64,000 nt of DNA. Origin: Brucella haematophila (GTDB taxonomy: Bacteria; Pseudomonadota; Alphaproteobacteria; Rhizobiales; Rhizobiaceae). Of this stretch, positions 33,107 to 49,134 are shown piece by piece. The translations under genes and the position numbers were made by a program. The stretch covers positions 124,001-188,000 of the forward strand of contig NZ_VCPE01000006.1 in assembly GCF_005938105.1 (NCBI RefSeq). Direction: 5' to 3'. Below the pieces are notes generated by a model. The model ran no database searches and was not told the origin of the DNA. It saw only the letters and a list, made by a program, of their open reading frames with translations. Each line of letters opens with the position of its first letter. Position 1 is the stretch's first letter.

Positions 33107-33775
33107 TTAGAAAACCACGATTGCTTGCAGAACAAGGCCGAGCACGATCCCACCATCCGAGGCGTGTAAAGGATCGATTGCGCCGTCGTCTGGATACGCG
33201 TCGAAGCGCATGCCCATCGCGTCAAAAGCTACTTTTCGGATTGTAATTTCCGCCTTGTCCTCGACAGCCGTGCGGGACACGACGACGACGTCGCCCGCGA
33301 TCAGTTCGCGCCCTGCGTCCCTTAGTGCATCGGCACTGGCCACCACGACGAACGCTTCGCTTGGAATGTTCAACCCGGCAGCATGCCCCCCGCGAACCTG
33401 AAAGATTTGTTGAGCTTCGATCGGATATCGAGGGTCCGGTTCAATCGCAACCGTCAGACCTTTGGGAATTCCTGCCCCCGGTGACCGCAACGCGCCAGCT
33501 TCGGCGATACCTGAAATCTTCGTTCCGTCAGGTGTGCCACCGCGTCGTGGCGTCCGCTGCTCAAGAGTTAGATATTCAGGATCGCAATCAAGCGCAAAAG
33601 CGGCCGCGTCAAGGTGCTTAAGGTTGAAGCGGTCTTTTTTGTATTTTCCATTTTCAAGACGGAACAGCTCATAGAAAAAATTCCTTGTCAGTCCGCCGCG
33701 TTTGGCAGCCTCAAATGCGTTGATGCCGAGGGCATCAAGACGGCCTTGGACGCGCTTCCGTAGAACATCGCTCAT
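33107..33775 (-). CDS. CI-like prophage repressor
   Basis: 222 residues. N-terminal HTH (about 8-60; AFEAAKRGGLTRNFFYELF) and a C-terminal beta-rich S24 peptidase-like domain (about 105-222; QQIFQVRGGHAAGL, ELIAGDVVVVSR, EITIRKVAF). In LexA/CI proteins the first motif carries the catalytic Ser (GxSM); here it is GGHA, and the Lys position is shifted to an Arg-Lys pair. Self-cleavage therefore looks impaired, though dimerisation may remain. It faces the operators at 33805 and 33914. Confidence 0.85.
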   Translation of the reverse strand: MSDVLRKRVQGRLDALGINAFEAAKRGGLTRNFFYELFRLENGKYKKDRFNLKHLDAAAFALDCDPEYLTLEQRTPRRGGTPDGTKISGIAEAGALRSPGAGIPKGLTVAIEPDPRYPIEAQQIFQVRGGHAAGLNIPSEAFVVVASADALRDAGRELIAGDVVVVSRTAVEDKAEITIRKVAFDAMGMRFDAYPDDGAIDPLHASDGGIVLGLVLQAIVVF

Positions 33776-36050: not shown

Positions 36051-38258
36051 ATGGCTGACAATGGCGATAAGTTTGCAGGCTTTGCCGGTGAGGTTGCCCG
36101 CGAACTCCTCGGCGAGCCAAACAAGCACCTTTCAACAACGAGCGAGCTTCGCTTCGGGAACAAGGGATCAGTTTCGATTGATCTTGAAAAGGGCACTTGG
36201 TTCGATCACGGCGAAAACACCGGAGGCGGCGTTCTCGCACTCATAGAAAGAGAAACCGGCCGCAAGGGCCGGGAGGCTGTCGACTGGCTGCGCGAGAAAG
36301 GCTTCCACGTCGACGACAGAGCGTCGTCCAGCAACCGTGACTATGCGCCGGACAATGGCAATTCTCGCCGCAATGACGAGAACATGAAGCCGGTCAAGAC
36401 GTGGGATTATGTCGACGAGAAAGGCGTTCTGCTTTTCCAAGTTGTACGGCTTGAGAACGGCGAAGTAGGGAAAGACGGCAAGCCGGAGAAAACATACCGG
36501 CAGCGCCGCCCGGACCCTTCGAAGGGCGGAGGCTGGAACTGGTCGACGAAAGACGTTCGGCAGGTCCCCTATCGCTTGCCCGAGCTATTGAAGGCGCTTG
36601 AAAAGAAGCATGTTGTTTTTGTCGTCGAAGGCGAGAAGGCGGCCGACAAGCTGCTCGACCTTGGGGTTCCTGCAACGACAAATGCGCGCGGTGCCGGGAA
36701 ATGGATCGCGGAACTTAGCGACTATCTTAAGGGTGCCCGCGTTGTCGTGCTCGCGGATGACGATCCGCAAGCACGGCACCAAAAGACAAACGAACCACTT
36801 TTTCATGATGACGGCCGCCCGAAGTTCGTCGGTATCGACCATGCAACTAGCGTGGCAGCATCCCTGCTTGGGAAGGCTTCGGAAGTCCGCGTCGTCCAAT
36901 TGACGGACAACAAGAAAAAAGAAGACGTCGTCGACTGGCTTGATGACGGTCACACTGTCGAGGAGCTTTACCAGATCGCGGCCAAGGCTCCCAAATTCAC
37001 GCCCCCGGCCTTCAAATCGAAGTTCAACGCGGTTCCGTGGGATGCTTTCGACGCTCCGGCCCAAGAGCACGAGTATCTAATCAAGGGCATTCTCACTCGC
37101 GGGGAAGTGTCGATCGTGTCTGGCGCGTCAAAGAGCGGGAAAACATTCTTGATACTTGACGCGGCTATGGCAGTCGCTCGCGGTATTAACTGGATGGGCC
37201 GCAAGTCTCGTCGTGGCGGCGTGATCTATCAGGCGGGTGAAGGTCAAAAGGGCCTCCGAAAGCGCATCAAGGCATATCGCCAATGGCACGGCCTTGTTGC
37301 TTCGGACAATCTGCCGTTCGTATTTATGCCCGCCCGGCTCAACCTGTACCAGAACGACGACCAGACAAACGAGTTCATTGAAGAAGCCAAGTATTGGGCG
37401 TCAACCTTCGATGCACCGCTTGAGCTGGTCGTCATCGACACTTGGGCGACGGCGACGGTCGGCGCGAATGAGAATGACGGCAAAGACGTCGGTTCGGTGT
37501 TGGAACGCGGACGCCGCATTTCAGAAGCCTTGAACTGCCACGTCCTGTTTGTGCACCACATGAATGCGGACGGCACGAAGGTACGCGGTCACTCCTCGCT
37601 TATTGCCAACCTCGAAAACGCTCTCATTGTCCGTTTGGCCGATGGGTTGCACGACGAAGATGGGCGGCAAATCCGCGAAGTGTTCTTGCAGAAGAACAAG
37701 GAAGGTGAAGACGGGATCACGTTCCGATTTGCCCTATCTCAGCTCAAGATCGGAAAAGACGAGGACGGCGACCCGATTACGTCTTGCGTCGTCGTCACGC
37801 CGAAGGGCGAAGGATCAGACGAGGCACCGGAGAAGCGGCCGAACATTTCCGACAAGGAAAATGTTCTCCTGTCCGCGATCCAGAACGCGCTAACCGAACA
37901 CGGCACCGATGCGCCGCCGTCAATGGGCCTGCCGGTCGACGTCCGCATTGTCCATTGGCAAAAGGTAATCGAAGCTTTCGACAAGCTCGATTTCGAATAT
38001 GCCGCCGAGAAGAACGACGACGAGAAGACACGTCAGCGGAAGCTTGACGCTCGCCGGAAGGAACTCGGCCGCCGTGGAGAGCGGCTGTTCCACAAGGGGC
38101 TTATCGCCCGCGATAGCCCACACGTCTGGCTAACTCCGAAGGCAAAGCGGCGCTTCCATAAGCAGGAAGACACACGCCAGCCGATCACACCCACAGAACC
38201 AAGCAACGTCAACATGGCGGCCGTCGAAGAAGCGGGCGTACTATGGGGGAACGATTGA
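36051..38258 (+). CDS. Phage primase-helicase (Toprim + RepA-like ATPase)
   Basis: 735 residues. N-terminal CHC2-like zinc-less region, Toprim domain (about 185-300; VVFVVEGEKAADKL at 187, VVVLADDD at 231), and a RepA/DnaB-type AAA ATPase (about 335-560) with Walker A GASKSGKT near 357 and a Walker B-like LVVIDTWA. Probably makes primers and unwinds the replication fork. It is the main replication gene of the right operon; the C-terminal ~170 residues are charged and unassigned. Confidence 0.9.
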   Translation: MADNGDKFAGFAGEVARELLGEPNKHLSTTSELRFGNKGSVSIDLEKGTWFDHGENTGGGVLALIERETGRKGREAVDWLREKGFHVDDRASSSNRDYAPDNGNSRRNDENMKPVKTWDYVDEKGVLLFQVVRLENGEVGKDGKPEKTYRQRRPDPSKGGGWNWSTKDVRQVPYRLPELLKALEKKHVVFVVEGEKAADKLLDLGVPATTNARGAGKWIAELSDYLKGARVVVLADDDPQARHQKTNEPLFHDDGRPKFVGIDHATSVAASLLGKASEVRVVQLTDNKKKEDVVDWLDDGHTVEELYQIAAKAPKFTPPAFKSKFNAVPWDAFDAPAQEHEYLIKGILTRGEVSIVSGASKSGKTFLILDAAMAVARGINWMGRKSRRGGVIYQAGEGQKGLRKRIKAYRQWHGLVASDNLPFVFMPARLNLYQNDDQTNEFIEEAKYWASTFDAPLELVVIDTWATATVGANENDGKDVGSVLERGRRISEALNCHVLFVHHMNADGTKVRGHSSLIANLENALIVRLADGLHDEDGRQIREVFLQKNKEGEDGITFRFALSQLKIGKDEDGDPITSCVVVTPKGEGSDEAPEKRPNISDKENVLLSAIQNALTEHGTDAPPSMGLPVDVRIVHWQKVIEAFDKLDFEYAAEKNDDEKTRQRKLDARRKELGRRGERLFHKGLIARDSPHVWLTPKAKRRFHKQEDTRQPITPTEPSNVNMAAVEEAGVLWGND

Positions 38259-38671
38259 CACACTATGATGATGTTTGGACCCCGAAACTTGTCGGGGAAG
38301 TCCTCGTCGATGCTGCGAAATGGTCGATTGCCAGCGCCGGGCGTACCGGCCCGGCTGACGACCGTAACGGCATTCTCGAAAAGCTCGACCCGGAGAATGT
38401 CATCCCTTCCCGCAAGCGGATGCTTTCACCTGCCCGCGTTTCGCTTCTCGAAAAGGCGATCCATTGGCCAACGATTTACCTCAAAGGCAACGACGGCGCT
38501 GCCCGCGTGCTGCAACTCTGGTTGCGGTGCAAGTGCACCCGCTACCGCTTTGGGAACGCTGTCGATGACAAGGGCTGGTCACGTGCCACCGCCTACAGGC
38601 TCCGCGACAAGGCTCTCTCCACCATTTCCCAAGGATTGGACCGCGATCGAATTGAGGTTCCGCGCCGATGA
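38243..38671 (+). CDS. DUF6362-like phage protein
   Basis: 142 residues, starts inside the primase end (16-base overlap). Core SPARVSLLEKAIHWPTIYLK and SRATAYRLRDKALSTI resemble a phage HTH-like family (DUF6362) found near replication genes. Likely DNA binding. Next gene overlaps by ATGA. Confidence 0.65.
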   Translation: MGERLTHYDDVWTPKLVGEVLVDAAKWSIASAGRTGPADDRNGILEKLDPENVIPSRKRMLSPARVSLLEKAIHWPTIYLKGNDGAARVLQLWLRCKCTRYRFGNAVDDKGWSRATAYRLRDKALSTISQGLDRDRIEVPRR

Positions 38672-38874
38672 CACAGCCAAATCTAATTTTCATTCGTCGC
38701 GCACGAAAAGCGGCCTGCCCTGTGCGCGTGTTTCAGAAGCGGCCATATGCCAAGGCGGCCGCGATAGGGATGCATCGTGCGGGCGTTAGTCAGCGGGAGA
38801 TTTGCCGGAGGCTGGAAATCAGTCAATCACTCCTGAACTCCTTCATTGCCCCCTTCTCGCTCTTTCGGATTTGA
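38668..38874 (+). CDS. Small homeodomain-like HTH protein
   Basis: 68 residues. AAAIGMHRAGVSQREICRRL then EISQSLLNSFI is a compact helix-turn-helix as in resolvase/transposase-type binding domains. ATGA overlap with the gene before; a terminator follows directly. Confidence 0.65.
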   Translation: MTQPNLIFIRRARKAACPVRVFQKRPYAKAAAIGMHRAGVSQREICRRLEISQSLLNSFIAPFSLFRI

Positions 38875-44284: not shown

Positions 44285-44962
44285 CTAAAAATGGAACGTT
44301 TCGCTATCGAGCAAGTCGGCGCGCGTAAGGCCGTCGGTCCCGGCTATCGGGGCGTCGATAGAGACGTTCTTGAAGTGGTCGAACTGGCGGTTGTAGGCGG
44401 TCACTGCCGCTTTGACGGCTTCATTCAGCTTATTGAACTCGACCCTGTTCTTGAGGGCCATTTCCATAACCGCCGCGATCACATCCATCTTTGCCGATGG
44501 GTCGAGATATCCGGGGACCATCGGACGGATAAGCGCTCGCAATTCGTTTGGCTTCTCCCGCGCCATCTTCAAAGACTTGTTGCGGTAGTATCGGCGCATT
44601 CTTATTGCCCGCTCGTTTTTGTTTGTGTATATTCCGGTGCGCGCTCTACTTTCGCGGCGAAGCTGCCTCGCCCTTTCGAGTAGTACGGGATCGCCCCTTA
44701 TTTTATCCTGCTTTCGCTTGTCTATTTCCTTAGCCTTTTTCGGGTTTTTCTTGCGCCATTGGCGGACATACTCGCGTTTATATTCGCGGTACTTCTCCCG
44801 GTTTTCTTCGCGCCATTTACGCTTGTATTCGCGTATTTCGTTCTTGAGCCGCTCAACCTCGTCGAGCGCTTCTTCCGTGTCCATCTGGAGGATGCGATCA
44901 AAGTCCGCTCTCTTCATCCATTTCGGGCACTTCATCTTGGCCTTCGACAGCTTAAAGGACAT
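44285..44962 (-). CDS. Highly basic coiled-coil protein
   Basis: 225 residues with very high Lys/Arg content. Region 40-85 repeats Arg/Lys-Glu-Tyr-Lys units (REYKRKWREENREKYREY), likely a long basic helix that binds nucleic acid. The C-terminal third is mixed helix. Such segments also precede HNH domains, but no HNH motif is seen. Function unknown. Coupled by 1 base to the gene upstream. Confidence 0.65.
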   Translation of the reverse strand: MSFKLSKAKMKCPKWMKRADFDRILQMDTEEALDEVERLKNEIREYKRKWREENREKYREYKREYVRQWRKKNPKKAKEIDKRKQDKIRGDPVLLERARQLRRESRARTGIYTNKNERAIRMRRYYRNKSLKMAREKPNELRALIRPMVPGYLDPSAKMDVIAAVMEMALKNRVEFNKLNEAVKAAVTAYNRQFDHFKNVSIDAPIAGTDGLTRADLLDSETFHF

Positions 44963-46868: not shown

Positions 46869-47123
46869 TCAAAGCCCATCGAATGCATCTAATTCGGCTA
46901 GGATTTCATCGATCGTCATTAGCGGGGTGTCTTCGATTATGATCCCGTGTTTGGCGAGGAAGGCTATTTCGCCTTCGCGTTCCCGCTCGATCATTCGGAC
47001 GTTATGTTCCCGCCAAGCCCGTTCTGTCTCGGTCCTTGCGTCACTGACCCGGGCGCGTTCGTGTGACAAGCGAAGCTCGATAGCTTCGAGGTGGTTTGTG
47101 CTCACTTCTGATACTGTCGGCAT
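46869..47123 (-). CDS. Small coiled-coil phage protein, first of second left operon
   Basis: 84 residues, charged and helical (IELRLSHERARVSDARTETE). Its ATG overlaps a half copy of the CI operator (47122-47138), and two full copies lie 54 and 85 bases upstream. Not recognised. Confidence 0.55.
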   Translation of the reverse strand: MPTVSEVSTNHLEAIELRLSHERARVSDARTETERAWREHNVRMIEREREGEIAFLAKHGIIIEDTPLMTIDEILAELDAFDGL

Positions 47124-47176: not shown

Positions 47177-47193
47177 GACAGATTTTATCTAAC
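47177..47193. promoter_or_regulatory. CI-type operator copy (far right 1)
   Basis: GACAGATTTTATCTAAC: two mismatches in the left arm, perfect right arm. Confidence 0.65.
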
Positions 47194-47207
47194 TTCGCAA
47201 CAGCAAA

Positions 47208-47224
47208 GTTAGATTTTTTCTTAC
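47208..47224. promoter_or_regulatory. CI-type operator copy (far right 2)
   Basis: GTTAGATTTTTTCTTAC: perfect left arm, one mismatch in the right arm; 31 bp from the neighbouring copy, about three helical turns. Confidence 0.65.
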
Positions 47225-47289
47225 TTTTTTATCAGGCAAATCACCTGCTGCTAATGGCGACTGGTAAGTCGTTGATAAGTAAGGGGCTG

Positions 47290-47536
47290 CCGGACACATG
47301 CGCCTTGCAGCCGGACAAAATGCGCATTCAACCGGACAGAAACGGCAGGAATGCCGGACACTCCATTGTCCGGCGCGTCAGTTACCCTTTTAAATTCATA
47401 ACGTTAACACCGTGTCCGGCAGAATGAGCCTGAAAAGCTACCGGACACGCATGCCGGACAAAATTATTTTCACATGTCCGTCTGAGTACGAAGTGGTTGA
47501 AAAGACTACAACTTAATACGAACCATTCTTGTCCGG
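47290..47536. repeat. Cluster of ten CCGGACA boxes
   Basis: Forward copies at 47290, 47311, 47332, 47354, 47441, 47454; inverted copies at 47367, 47413, 47475 (one mismatch), 47530. The first three are exactly 21 bp apart. Pairs 47354/47367 and 47413/47441 form inverted repeats. Candidate binding array for an initiator, a packaging protein or a late regulator. Confidence 0.8.
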
Positions 47537-47758
47537 TACGAAACAGTACGATCTGTTACGGATTTTTTCTATTGACGAGTGAGACAAAATCGCTCTTTCT
47601 CTCGCGTTAAGACGATGGGGTCGCACGCGGATCGTAGAGCACTGACGAGAGCGAGGCGACGGGAGACGACAAGTCTCCCGGAGAGACGAGCGATCTAGTA
47701 TTGTTATTCTGATCCATCGTTAAAATAGAAAATCTTTAATTTTAAATCCGCATGCGAG

Positions 47759-47793
47759 CGCGCGTTATGCCTTGTCGGCAACGCGCGTTTTTT
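47759..47793 (+). terminator. Terminator just before the late operon
   Basis: CGCGCGTT (47759-47766) pairs with AACGCGCG (47780-47787), then six T; it stops transcription 28 bases before the first late gene. Confidence 0.85.
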
Positions 47794-47820
47794 CATGCCG
47801 GGTTTTGATCGGGTGAAAAT

Positions 47821-48357
47821 ATGGCAGGCATCGTCATCACCACGGACGGCGTATTCAAACGATACGGCAAGGCGCTGGAAGCAATCGGCGAACGTGATGC
47901 AAAACGTGTATTCGCCCGAGCACTCAATCGCGGTGGCGACCAAGCCCGCACGCAAGTCAAGCGTTCGCTGGTCGCTCAAACCGGGATCAAGTACGGCCTG
48001 ATTAACAAGGCCGTCAAAACCATTCGAGCGCACCCGAACAAGCTCGAATACAAATTGGAAGCGGAAGGCGGGGAAACAAACCTCAACCTGTTCAATGCCC
48101 GACAAGGCAAGAAAGGTGTGAGCGCTGCCCCATGGAAAAAGCGCCGAGTTTTCAAGTCGACCTTTATCGTCCCCGCGTATGACGGCAGGGTGTTCAAGCG
48201 TGAAGGCAAAGGGCGCGGACCGCTCGAACCGCTGTTCGGTCCCAACATCGCCCGAGAGGTCGTCAAAGACCCGACTGCCGAGAAGTGGCGCATGGTCAGT
48301 GGGTTCGTCATGACCCGCGTCGAGCATGAACTCATGCGCCTTTTCAAGCTCTCCTAA
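47821..48357 (+). CDS. Minor tail protein Z-like protein
   Basis: 178 residues. N-terminal helices (RDAKRVFARALNRGGDQART), then VFKREGKGRGPLEPLFGPNI, which fits the GPZ/minor tail family. In lambda Z helps finish tails. Here the gene lies before the terminase, away from the other structural genes. No ribosome site of note. Confidence 0.78.
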   Translation: MAGIVITTDGVFKRYGKALEAIGERDAKRVFARALNRGGDQARTQVKRSLVAQTGIKYGLINKAVKTIRAHPNKLEYKLEAEGGETNLNLFNARQGKKGVSAAPWKKRRVFKSTFIVPAYDGRVFKREGKGRGPLEPLFGPNIAREVVKDPTAEKWRMVSGFVMTRVEHELMRLFKLS

Positions 48358-48380: not shown

Positions 48381-48530
48381 ATTTGACCGTACACGCGCGT
48401 TCTTTCGCGATGGTCAAATCGGTATCGGCAGGGCGGCCGTGCGTGTGGGTGACCGCCTCCGAGGCGAGGCACCCCCACCCCTTTAGGGACCGTACCCTAC
48501 CCCCAAGGCATGCGGTGCCGCCGCAGCCCC
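48381..48530. other. Candidate cos/packaging region upstream of terminase
   Basis: 237 bases between gene Z and terminase. It holds an 8-bp inverted repeat ATTTGACC/GGTCAAAT (48381-48388/48412-48419) and a GC-rich zone with GGCACCCCCACCCC near 48477. Placement upstream of the small terminase fits a cos or pac site, but I do not see a known overhang sequence. Confidence 0.35.
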
Positions 48531-48594: not shown

Positions 48595-49134
48595 ATGGCG
48601 AAAAAACCGACCGTCACCCCTCCGGCGACGCGCGTCTTTGCTTTGACTGGCGATGAAGTGATTTCCGCCAGTGGAGCGGCTTCCCTCTTGGGAGTTACGA
48701 CGCAATGGCTCCGGCAGTTGGCGGCGAATGGCTATGTCCCGACTGCGGTCAAAGGCAAGTACCCGCTCGTCGAAGTGGTGCAAGGCTACGTCCGCTCTCT
48801 CAAAGACGAGGAGCGGCGCTCAACAAAATCGGCAGCGGACAACGGCTTGAAAGCAGCGCGACAGCGCGAAGTTGAACTCCGCATCGCCAAAGAGGAAGGC
48901 CGTCTCGTCGAAATGGACGACGTCGAGGCCGTTTCATCCAGCATTTTAGCAACGCTCCGGGCCGAACTGGCAGGGCTTCCCGCGTCGGTGACGCGTGATG
49001 TGAAGCTCCGGGATGAGATTGAGAAGGGTCTAAATGGCGCGTTTGCTCGATCACAAAACAAGTTCCGGGAGGCAAGCGAGGCTCTACGATCTGGCCGCGA
49101 TCCTTTGGGAACCGACAGAGAAGACGACGCCTGA
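48595..49134 (+). CDS. Terminase small subunit (Nu1-like)
   Basis: 179 residues from the ATG at 48595 after AAGGAA; the frame opens earlier at 48535 without support. N-terminal HTH (SASGAASLLGVTTQWLRQLA) as in Nu1, then helices for binding the large subunit. It recognises the packaging site. Overlaps the large subunit by 101 bases. Confidence 0.85.
   Translation: MAKKPTVTPPATRVFALTGDEVISASGAASLLGVTTQWLRQLAANGYVPTAVKGKYPLVEVVQGYVRSLKDEERRSTKSAADNGLKAARQREVELRIAKEEGRLVEMDDVEAVSSSILATLRAELAGLPASVTRDVKLRDEIEKGLNGAFARSQNKFREASEALRSGRDPLGTDREDDA

What the first reader, a model, noticed from the sequence alone, without database searches (positions are those of the whole stretch)
47290..47536. Ten CCGGACA boxes in 250 bp between early and late genes
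Three boxes are spaced exactly 21 bp apart (two helical turns), others pair as inverted repeats with 6- and 21-bp gaps. Phage iterons, terminase-binding sites or a late-activator array could all look like this, but the motif matches nothing I know. It lies directly beside the terminase end of the late operon, in otherwise non-coding DNA.
Basis: partly seen in the sequence, partly recalled or inferred. Interest (0 to 1): 0.75.

Follow-up and report, generated by a model that had tools for sequence, protein, structure and literature searches.

The report
Phage late-gene control box array
A prophage carries an array of ten copies of a short DNA word, kept at near-exact spacing in nine related phages, just upstream of what looks like the switch for its virion-building genes; it is most likely the docking array for the phage's own late-gene activator.

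Summary
47290-47536 has nine exact CCGGACA boxes plus one ACGGACA; 200 simulated windows never exceeded 3 per 250 bp. In nine phages (the window and eight relatives) ten boxes keep an invariant CGGACA core and fixed offsets (the last 239 or 240), while spacers average 48% identity. The box reads WRSCGGACA. The array ends 42-44 bp before a promoter-like element (TTGACG-N2-TGAGACAAAATCGC), followed by an ultra-conserved leader with a covarying GACAA-loop hairpin, a predicted terminator and the late genes. Three divergent phages (G139, G430, Microcystis phage Mae-JY30) have the promoter element before the same neck gene; two have GTGACA clusters upstream; all have a DUF6362-like gene after the primase. 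Two elements in another genus (G269) have CGGACA arrays near a DUF6362-like gene. I read it as a late-operon activation array working with Q/GafZ-like antitermination; the reader protein is inferred. Terminase binding is unlikely: relatives with 75% identical TerS lack the array. A replication origin is the main rival. My literature searches, whose listings I read only in part, showed no description of it.

The parts
47290..47536 (.). Box array, ten WRSCGGACA-type boxes: 47290+, 47311+, 47332+, 47354+, 47367-, 47413-, 47441+, 47454+, 47475- (ACGGACA), 47530-
   Evidence: core identical in 9 of 9 phages, spacers 48% mean pairwise identity
47354..47373 (.). Inverted box pair with 6-bp gap; same pair spacing seen in G269:C40
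47454..47481 (.). Boxes 8 and 9 flanking a largely conserved AT-rich stretch (AAAATTATTTTC here)
   Evidence: alignment
47572..47600 (+). Late promoter-like element: TTGACG (47572-47577), spacer element TGAGACAAAATCGC (47580-47593), poor -10 (CTTTCT, 47595-47600)
   Evidence: a strict sigma70 scan finds no promoter
47601..47724 (+). Ultra-conserved leader with predicted RNA structure
   Evidence: 47572-47710 is 93% identical on average against 48% in array spacers
47660..47680 (+). Hairpin with GACAA pentaloop (boxB-like); stem covaries
47756..47793 (+). Predicted intrinsic terminator ahead of the late genes
   Evidence: hairpin in 4 of 4 phages folded; not listed by the simple terminator scan
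47821..48357 (+). First late gene: neck1/tail completion protein (phrog_27)
48482..48497 (+). Candidate cos element TTTAGGGACCGTACCC, 88-115 bp upstream of terS in the nine array phages (first letters vary)
   Evidence: absent in G261 and G430
48595..49134 (+). Terminase small subunit (phrog_57)
38243..38671 (+). Candidate reader/antiterminator: phrog_6836, DUF6362-like protein directly after the primase
38668..38874 (+). 68-aa HTH protein overlapping the previous gene; second candidate reader
36051..38258 (+). Primase/helicase (phrog_239); candidate reader in the origin rival

Best explanation
The array is the upstream control element of the phage's late promoter. A phage early protein binds the asymmetric WRSCGGACA boxes cooperatively. 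The best candidate is the DUF6362-like protein at 38243, alone or with its overlapping small HTH partner at 38668. The complex activates a promoter (TTGACG / TGAGACAAAATCGC / poor -10) that cannot fire well alone. The promoter spacer element and the GACAA-hairpin leader then load or form a Q/GafZ/put-like antitermination state, so that polymerase passes the terminator at 47756-47793 into the late operon. Shown: the boxes, their spacing conservation, the fixed distance to the promoter-like element, the covarying leader hairpin, the predicted terminator hairpin, and the same promoter-like element in divergent phages with DUF6362-like proteins. Inferred: that the element is the late promoter, that the leader is transcribed, who binds, activation rather than repression, and antitermination.
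For: The box columns are 100% identical over all pairs of the nine phages; spacers average 48.4% and leader 93.3% identity; one gap column inside the array. Offsets agree in 9 of 9, the tenth being 239 or 240. Last common box to TTGACG is 42-44 bp in 9 of 9. In L013 and L014 the DNA left of the array is different, yet array, promoter and leader remain. The pattern TTKMC-N1-5-TGAGACAAA, drawn from these phages, occurs in 405 held loci (3.67 Mb with overlaps) only in array phages, G139, G430 and Mae-JY30; all four lineages have a phrog_6836/DUF6362-like gene. GTGACA: 4 of 8 occurrences in 30 kb of Mae-JY30 and 4 of 8 in 18 kb of G139 lie in one cluster upstream of that element. G269:C40 has six WRSCGGACA boxes in about 105 bp, 0.7 kb from a DUF6362-like gene. 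The leader hairpin has changes on both sides in 3 of 8 pairs, covariation score reached by 0 of 500 shuffles. Published model: GafY far upstream, GafZ element between -10 and -35, terminator downstream (PMC11150451, sections).
Against: No binding, transcript or start-site data. G430 has the promoter element and a DUF6362-like protein but no array. In G139 alone four copies of some 6-mer are not exceptional (null maximum 4 or more in 161 of 300 simulations). The G269 arrays are not ahead of a recognised late operon. The HTH motif RATAYR is the same in G430 and G404, for which no array was found. The window protein matches Pfam DUF6362 only at E=0.11 and G139's not at all. The strict promoter scan finds nothing and the terminator scan does not list 47756-47793. 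For the hairpin, the number of pairs with changes on both sides is reached by 32 of 500 shuffles and the number of pair types by 367. No structure was obtained.
Confidence: 0.55

Rival explanations
1. Replication origin: the boxes are iterons bound by the phage primase/helicase or another initiator, as in satellite phage P4 or DnaA-box origins (recalled), placed in the divergent intergenic region.
For: Asymmetric 9-bp boxes in mixed orientation with fixed spacing and an AT-rich stretch between boxes 8 and 9. The primase/helicase is in all nine array phages, 80-99% identical to the window's in the other eight.
Against: The fixed 42-44 bp to a promoter element is not needed for an origin. The G269 pieces with arrays gave no primase match, though C40 is only an 18-kb contig. 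G404 and G139 have primases of 59% and 45% identity and no CGGACA array in the stretches and whole-genome pair search examined. The GC-skew profile shows no sharp turn, which is weak evidence.
Confidence: 0.2
2. Silencing array: the boxes are operators of a repressor that keeps the late promoter off in the lysogen or early in infection.
For: The same position would suit a multi-site repressor; the array lies between divergent operons.
Against: The region between the CI-like gene (33107-33775) and the next ORF has no CGGACA, so the CI-like repressor is an unlikely reader. Known late controls of temperate phages are mostly positive (recalled).
Confidence: 0.12
3. Terminase recognition site (cosB or pac) bound by the small terminase.
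For: Within 1.1 kb of terS here and 1.6 kb in G269:C40; TerS is one of the few proteins shared with G269.
Against: G261 has 75% identical TerS, and Pseudochrobactrum prophages have about 75% late-module DNA identity; neither has more than two CGGACA in any 250 bp of the 35 kb fetched around each. A separate conserved element lies 88-115 bp upstream of terS in the nine array phages and 260 bp upstream in G139; it is absent in G261 and G430, so its role is open.
Confidence: 0.05

Closest known systems
GafY/GafZ-IHF control of the Caulobacter GTA cluster (PMC11150451)
   Same: Upstream activator element, an element between -10 and -35, an HTH regulator, and a terminator passed by antitermination in a phage-type late operon.
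   Different: Here there is an array of ten boxes instead of one upstream element, a structured leader with a GACAA hairpin, and the terminator lies before the first gene. No GafY homologue was recognised among the proteins scanned.
Lambda Q / pR' / tR' late control (recalled; Q and its element discussed in PMC11150451)
   Same: Late promoter, about 190-nt leader, terminator, then late genes; conserved element in the promoter spacer.
   Different: A 250-bp upstream box array; no Q family match among the proteins scanned.
HK022 put RNA (PMC9378689, passages) and lambdoid boxB hairpins (recalled)
   Same: Structured RNA near the start of a phage transcript; pentaloop hairpin (GACAA recalled from P22 boxB).
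   Different: Different size and fold, late not early operon, no activity shown.
P4 ori/crr iterons and DnaA-box origins (recalled)
   Same: Short asymmetric boxes in both orientations at fixed spacing.
   Different: Tied to a promoter element; no initiator shown.

Membership tests
GafYZ-type late control | Regulator related to GafZ (sigma-like HTH) | tested here: inconclusive
   phrog_6836 E=3e-34, Pfam DUF6362 E=0.11; link of DUF6362 to GafZ not tested
GafYZ-type late control | Regulator element between -35 and -10 | tested here: inconclusive
   TGAGACAAA(A)TC at the same distance from TTKAC in four lineages; function unknown
GafYZ-type late control | GafY homologue (DnaA domain IV-like) binding upstream | tested here: inconclusive
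   No DnaA-like Pfam match among the 21 window proteins scanned; not every early ORF was scanned
GafYZ-type late control | IHF site between upstream element and promoter | not tested
   -
Lambda Q-type late control | Promoter, leader, terminator, late genes in order | tested here: inconclusive
   Order present by pattern and folding; transcription not shown, scans list neither promoter nor this terminator
Lambda Q-type late control | Q protein family member | tested here: inconclusive
   No antiterminator family among the 20 window proteins scanned with PHROGs; not every early ORF was scanned
boxB / put antitermination RNA | RNA hairpin supported by covariation | tested here: met
   95.8% of cells paired, 3 pairs with changes on both sides, 0/500 shuffles reach the covariation score (32/500 reach the pair count)
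boxB / put antitermination RNA | Match to a known RNA family | tested here: not met
   only one sub-threshold match (naRNA4, 18.7 against 59.5 bits), in the array, minus strand
boxB / put antitermination RNA | Antitermination activity | not testable with these tools
   -
Terminase cosB/pac site | Tracks the TerS it serves | tested here: not met
   TerS 75% identical without array
Replication origin iterons | Tracks its initiator | tested here: inconclusive
   All nine array phages have the primase; G269 pieces show none
Replication origin iterons | Autonomous replication | not testable with these tools
   -

The most novel reading that the evidence does not exclude
An undescribed class of phage late switch: DUF6362-type proteins read GACA-core boxes (SCGGACA in one lineage, SGTGACA-like in another), both in a far-upstream enhancer-like array and, as TGAGACA, inside the promoter spacer. 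This couples activation to antitermination through a structured leader. The box dialect would change with the HTH (RATAYR in array phages and G269, RASAYR in G139 and Mae-JY30).
Probability: 0.3. Interest if true: 0.78.

Novelty: new variant of a known kind. Interest (0 to 1): 0.62.

Why it matters
Direct late activation in alphaproteobacterial phage-like elements is worked out for the gene transfer agents (GafYZ in PMC11150451, sections; GafA in PMC9638019, passages). This gives a compact, strongly conserved phage target: an enhancer-like array, a promoter element shared by four lineages, a candidate reader family matched in 55 of 397 sampled genomes of the order, and a leader with a covarying hairpin. 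Each piece can be tested with short DNA and purified proteins.

Tried and rejected
I ranked 408 matches (overlapping loci included) by neighbouring boxes, saw the top 45 and read five others; they looked like coding repeats or unrelated repeat arrays. phrog_24127 protein (44285) as reader: also in array-less phages and POI1126. TerS as reader: see rivals. CI-like repressor: no box in its intergenic region. Rfam: nothing above threshold. Leader model R1: in 394 family genomes only the window and G139, which were both in the model, plus 11 weak hits read and judged chance; G430 not matched; G404 three weak hits, G269 none. A stricter inverted-pair pattern hit 8 of 327 genomes, not the own one, whose flank differs; of the nine loci only G269:C40 had an array. 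The others had no further boxes and looked like hairpin terminators or coding or single sites; three genomes matched the control pattern. G404 and G139: one pair each, no array. DNA downstream of 20 of the order-level DUF6362 matches, some contigs short, gave no promoter match and one weak neck match. I first took Pseudochrobactrum phages to lack DUF6362; one search shows a divergent member (phrog_6836, E=3e-10), so only the TerS argument is used. Solved structures: two chains at E=0.5, no use.

Full report
What is there. Nine exact CCGGACA and one ACGGACA lie in 47290-47536, inside a 697-bp gap between a minus-strand ORF whose start codon is at 47123 and the neck1 gene at 47821. The window lies in a 5.5-Mb genome. 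TerS (phrog_57) and TerL (phrog_15) follow the neck gene. Relatives in Ochrobactrum phage POI1126 and Pseudochrobactrum plasmids suggest a Brucellaceae-type host, which is inference.

Chance. The window has 20 CCGGACA against a shuffle mean of 8.5. The largest cluster in 200 Markov windows was 3 per 250 bp against 9 here. In the whole own genome the direct pair pattern hits only this array, three times; the reversed control hits five times.

Conservation. Seven IMG/VR contigs and one same-genus genome carry the same neck gene at 79-99% identity and the array. Relative to box 1 the cores sit at +0, 21, 42, 64, 151, 164 and -76, 122, 184, 239/240 in 9 of 9; a further one at 251 is in 5 of 9, not in the window. 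In the alignment the box columns are identical in every pair of the nine; spacers compared with the window range from 35% to 77%. Flanks of 95 instances give W (85 of 95), R (88 of 95), S (93 of 95) before CGGACA. This is the footprint expected of a sequence-specific protein that also cares about spacing.

What travels with it. In L013 and L014 the DNA left of the array is different, but array, promoter and leader remain. The Pseudochrobactrum prophages share the late module at about 75% DNA identity, with a differently annotated early module, and G261 has TerS 75% and neck 73% identical; none has more than two CGGACA in 250 bp of the 35 kb fetched around each. So the array goes with the early/regulatory side, not with packaging.

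Downstream anatomy. TTGACG at 47572 is 42-44 bp from the last common box in 9 of 9. TGAGACAAAATCGC follows, then a poor -10; the strict consensus scan finds no sigma70 promoter, and lists the element itself as a hairpin. The stretch 47572-47710 is 93% identical on average. The RNA fold of 47602-47800, terminator included, has z=-4.25. The hairpin at 47660-47680 keeps a pentaloop while its stem changes: 3 of 8 pairs have changes on both sides and 95.8% of cells are paired; 0 of 500 shuffles reach the covariation score, 32 reach the pair count (six sequences, G139 included, MAFFT alignment). A predicted intrinsic terminator sits at 47756-47793; 4 of 4 phages folded keep it with changed stems, though the simple scan does not list it. 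By eye, 9 of 29 more distant neck1 loci have a promoter-like TTGAC, short leader and terminator before neck1.

Divergent relatives. G139, G430 and Mae-JY30 have neck1 relatives (28-36% identity) and DUF6362-like proteins (38-40%) directly after a primase. All three have TTKACN-N2-TGAGACAAATC at the same spacing before neck1. The pattern was drawn from these phages; in the held loci it hits nothing else, and it misses L017-L019, whose A-run is changed. GTGACA clusters lie upstream in Mae-JY30 and G139 (4 of 8 occurrences each; chance figures for the given 6-mer 9e-7 and 1e-5). For G139 alone a free choice of 6-mer would not be significant. G430 has no array. None of these three has a CGGACA cluster.

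Same box elsewhere. G269 holds two elements with the array: six WRSCGGACA boxes in C40 and four CGGACA in C21. Window ORFs of 45 aa or more from 27.5 kb on, compared with these pieces, share DUF6362 (46% and 42%), TerS (31% and 33%), a decoration protein (C21) and marginal hits, among them a weak one to the CI-like protein. An inverted-pair search found no other array in 327 family genomes; that pattern would miss arrays without such a pair, the window's own included.

Reader. phrog_6836/DUF6362 is, with TerS, the protein shared by the box-bearing relatives that I could compare. The family is matched in 55 of 397 genomes of the order. Its HTH reads RATAYR in the array phages shown, G269, G404 and G430, and RASAYR in G139 and Mae-JY30. 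The small overlapping HTH protein (38668) is in all nine array phages and G404 but was not found in G269. Which one binds is not decided.

Literature. PMC11150451: abstract, passages, introduction, three result sections and the first part of the discussion. PMC9638019, PMC9632790, PMC5492332 and PMC9378689: passages. Seven searches gave no description of this array in the rows listed; the motif-letter search alone matched 4,026 papers, of which 12 were listed. P4 iterons, P22 boxB and lambda details are recalled.

Verdict. A real, strongly constrained array in a probable late-control region. I put activator array at 0.55, origin 0.2, silencing array 0.12, terminase 0.05.

Noticed in passing
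window 48482-48497: TTTAGGGACCGTACCC upstream of terS, core conserved in the nine array phages and G139, and by eye (ACGGTCCCTA form) in 7 of 28 neck1 loci; candidate cos element. Absent in G261 and G430.
   Followed up: partly
window 47187-47225: Strong inverted repeat ATCTAACTTCGC/GCAAAGTTAGAT followed by a T run; kept in 7 of 9 phages, absent in L013 and L014 where the left flank differs.
   Followed up: partly
window 47485-47560: TACGA words: 4 copies between array start and promoter in the window and 5 in L016, against 0-2 in the other seven phages; possibly a second set of sites.
   Followed up: partly
window 44285-44962: Charged protein (phrog_24127) shared with array-less prophages and Ochrobactrum phage POI1126 gp58.
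   Followed up: partly
L314 9829-11522; L374 4403-6307: TcmP and DUF5131-type pair near phage regulatory genes in two separate elements (annotated so in L374; L314 by recall of the sequence type, not searched).
   Followed up: no
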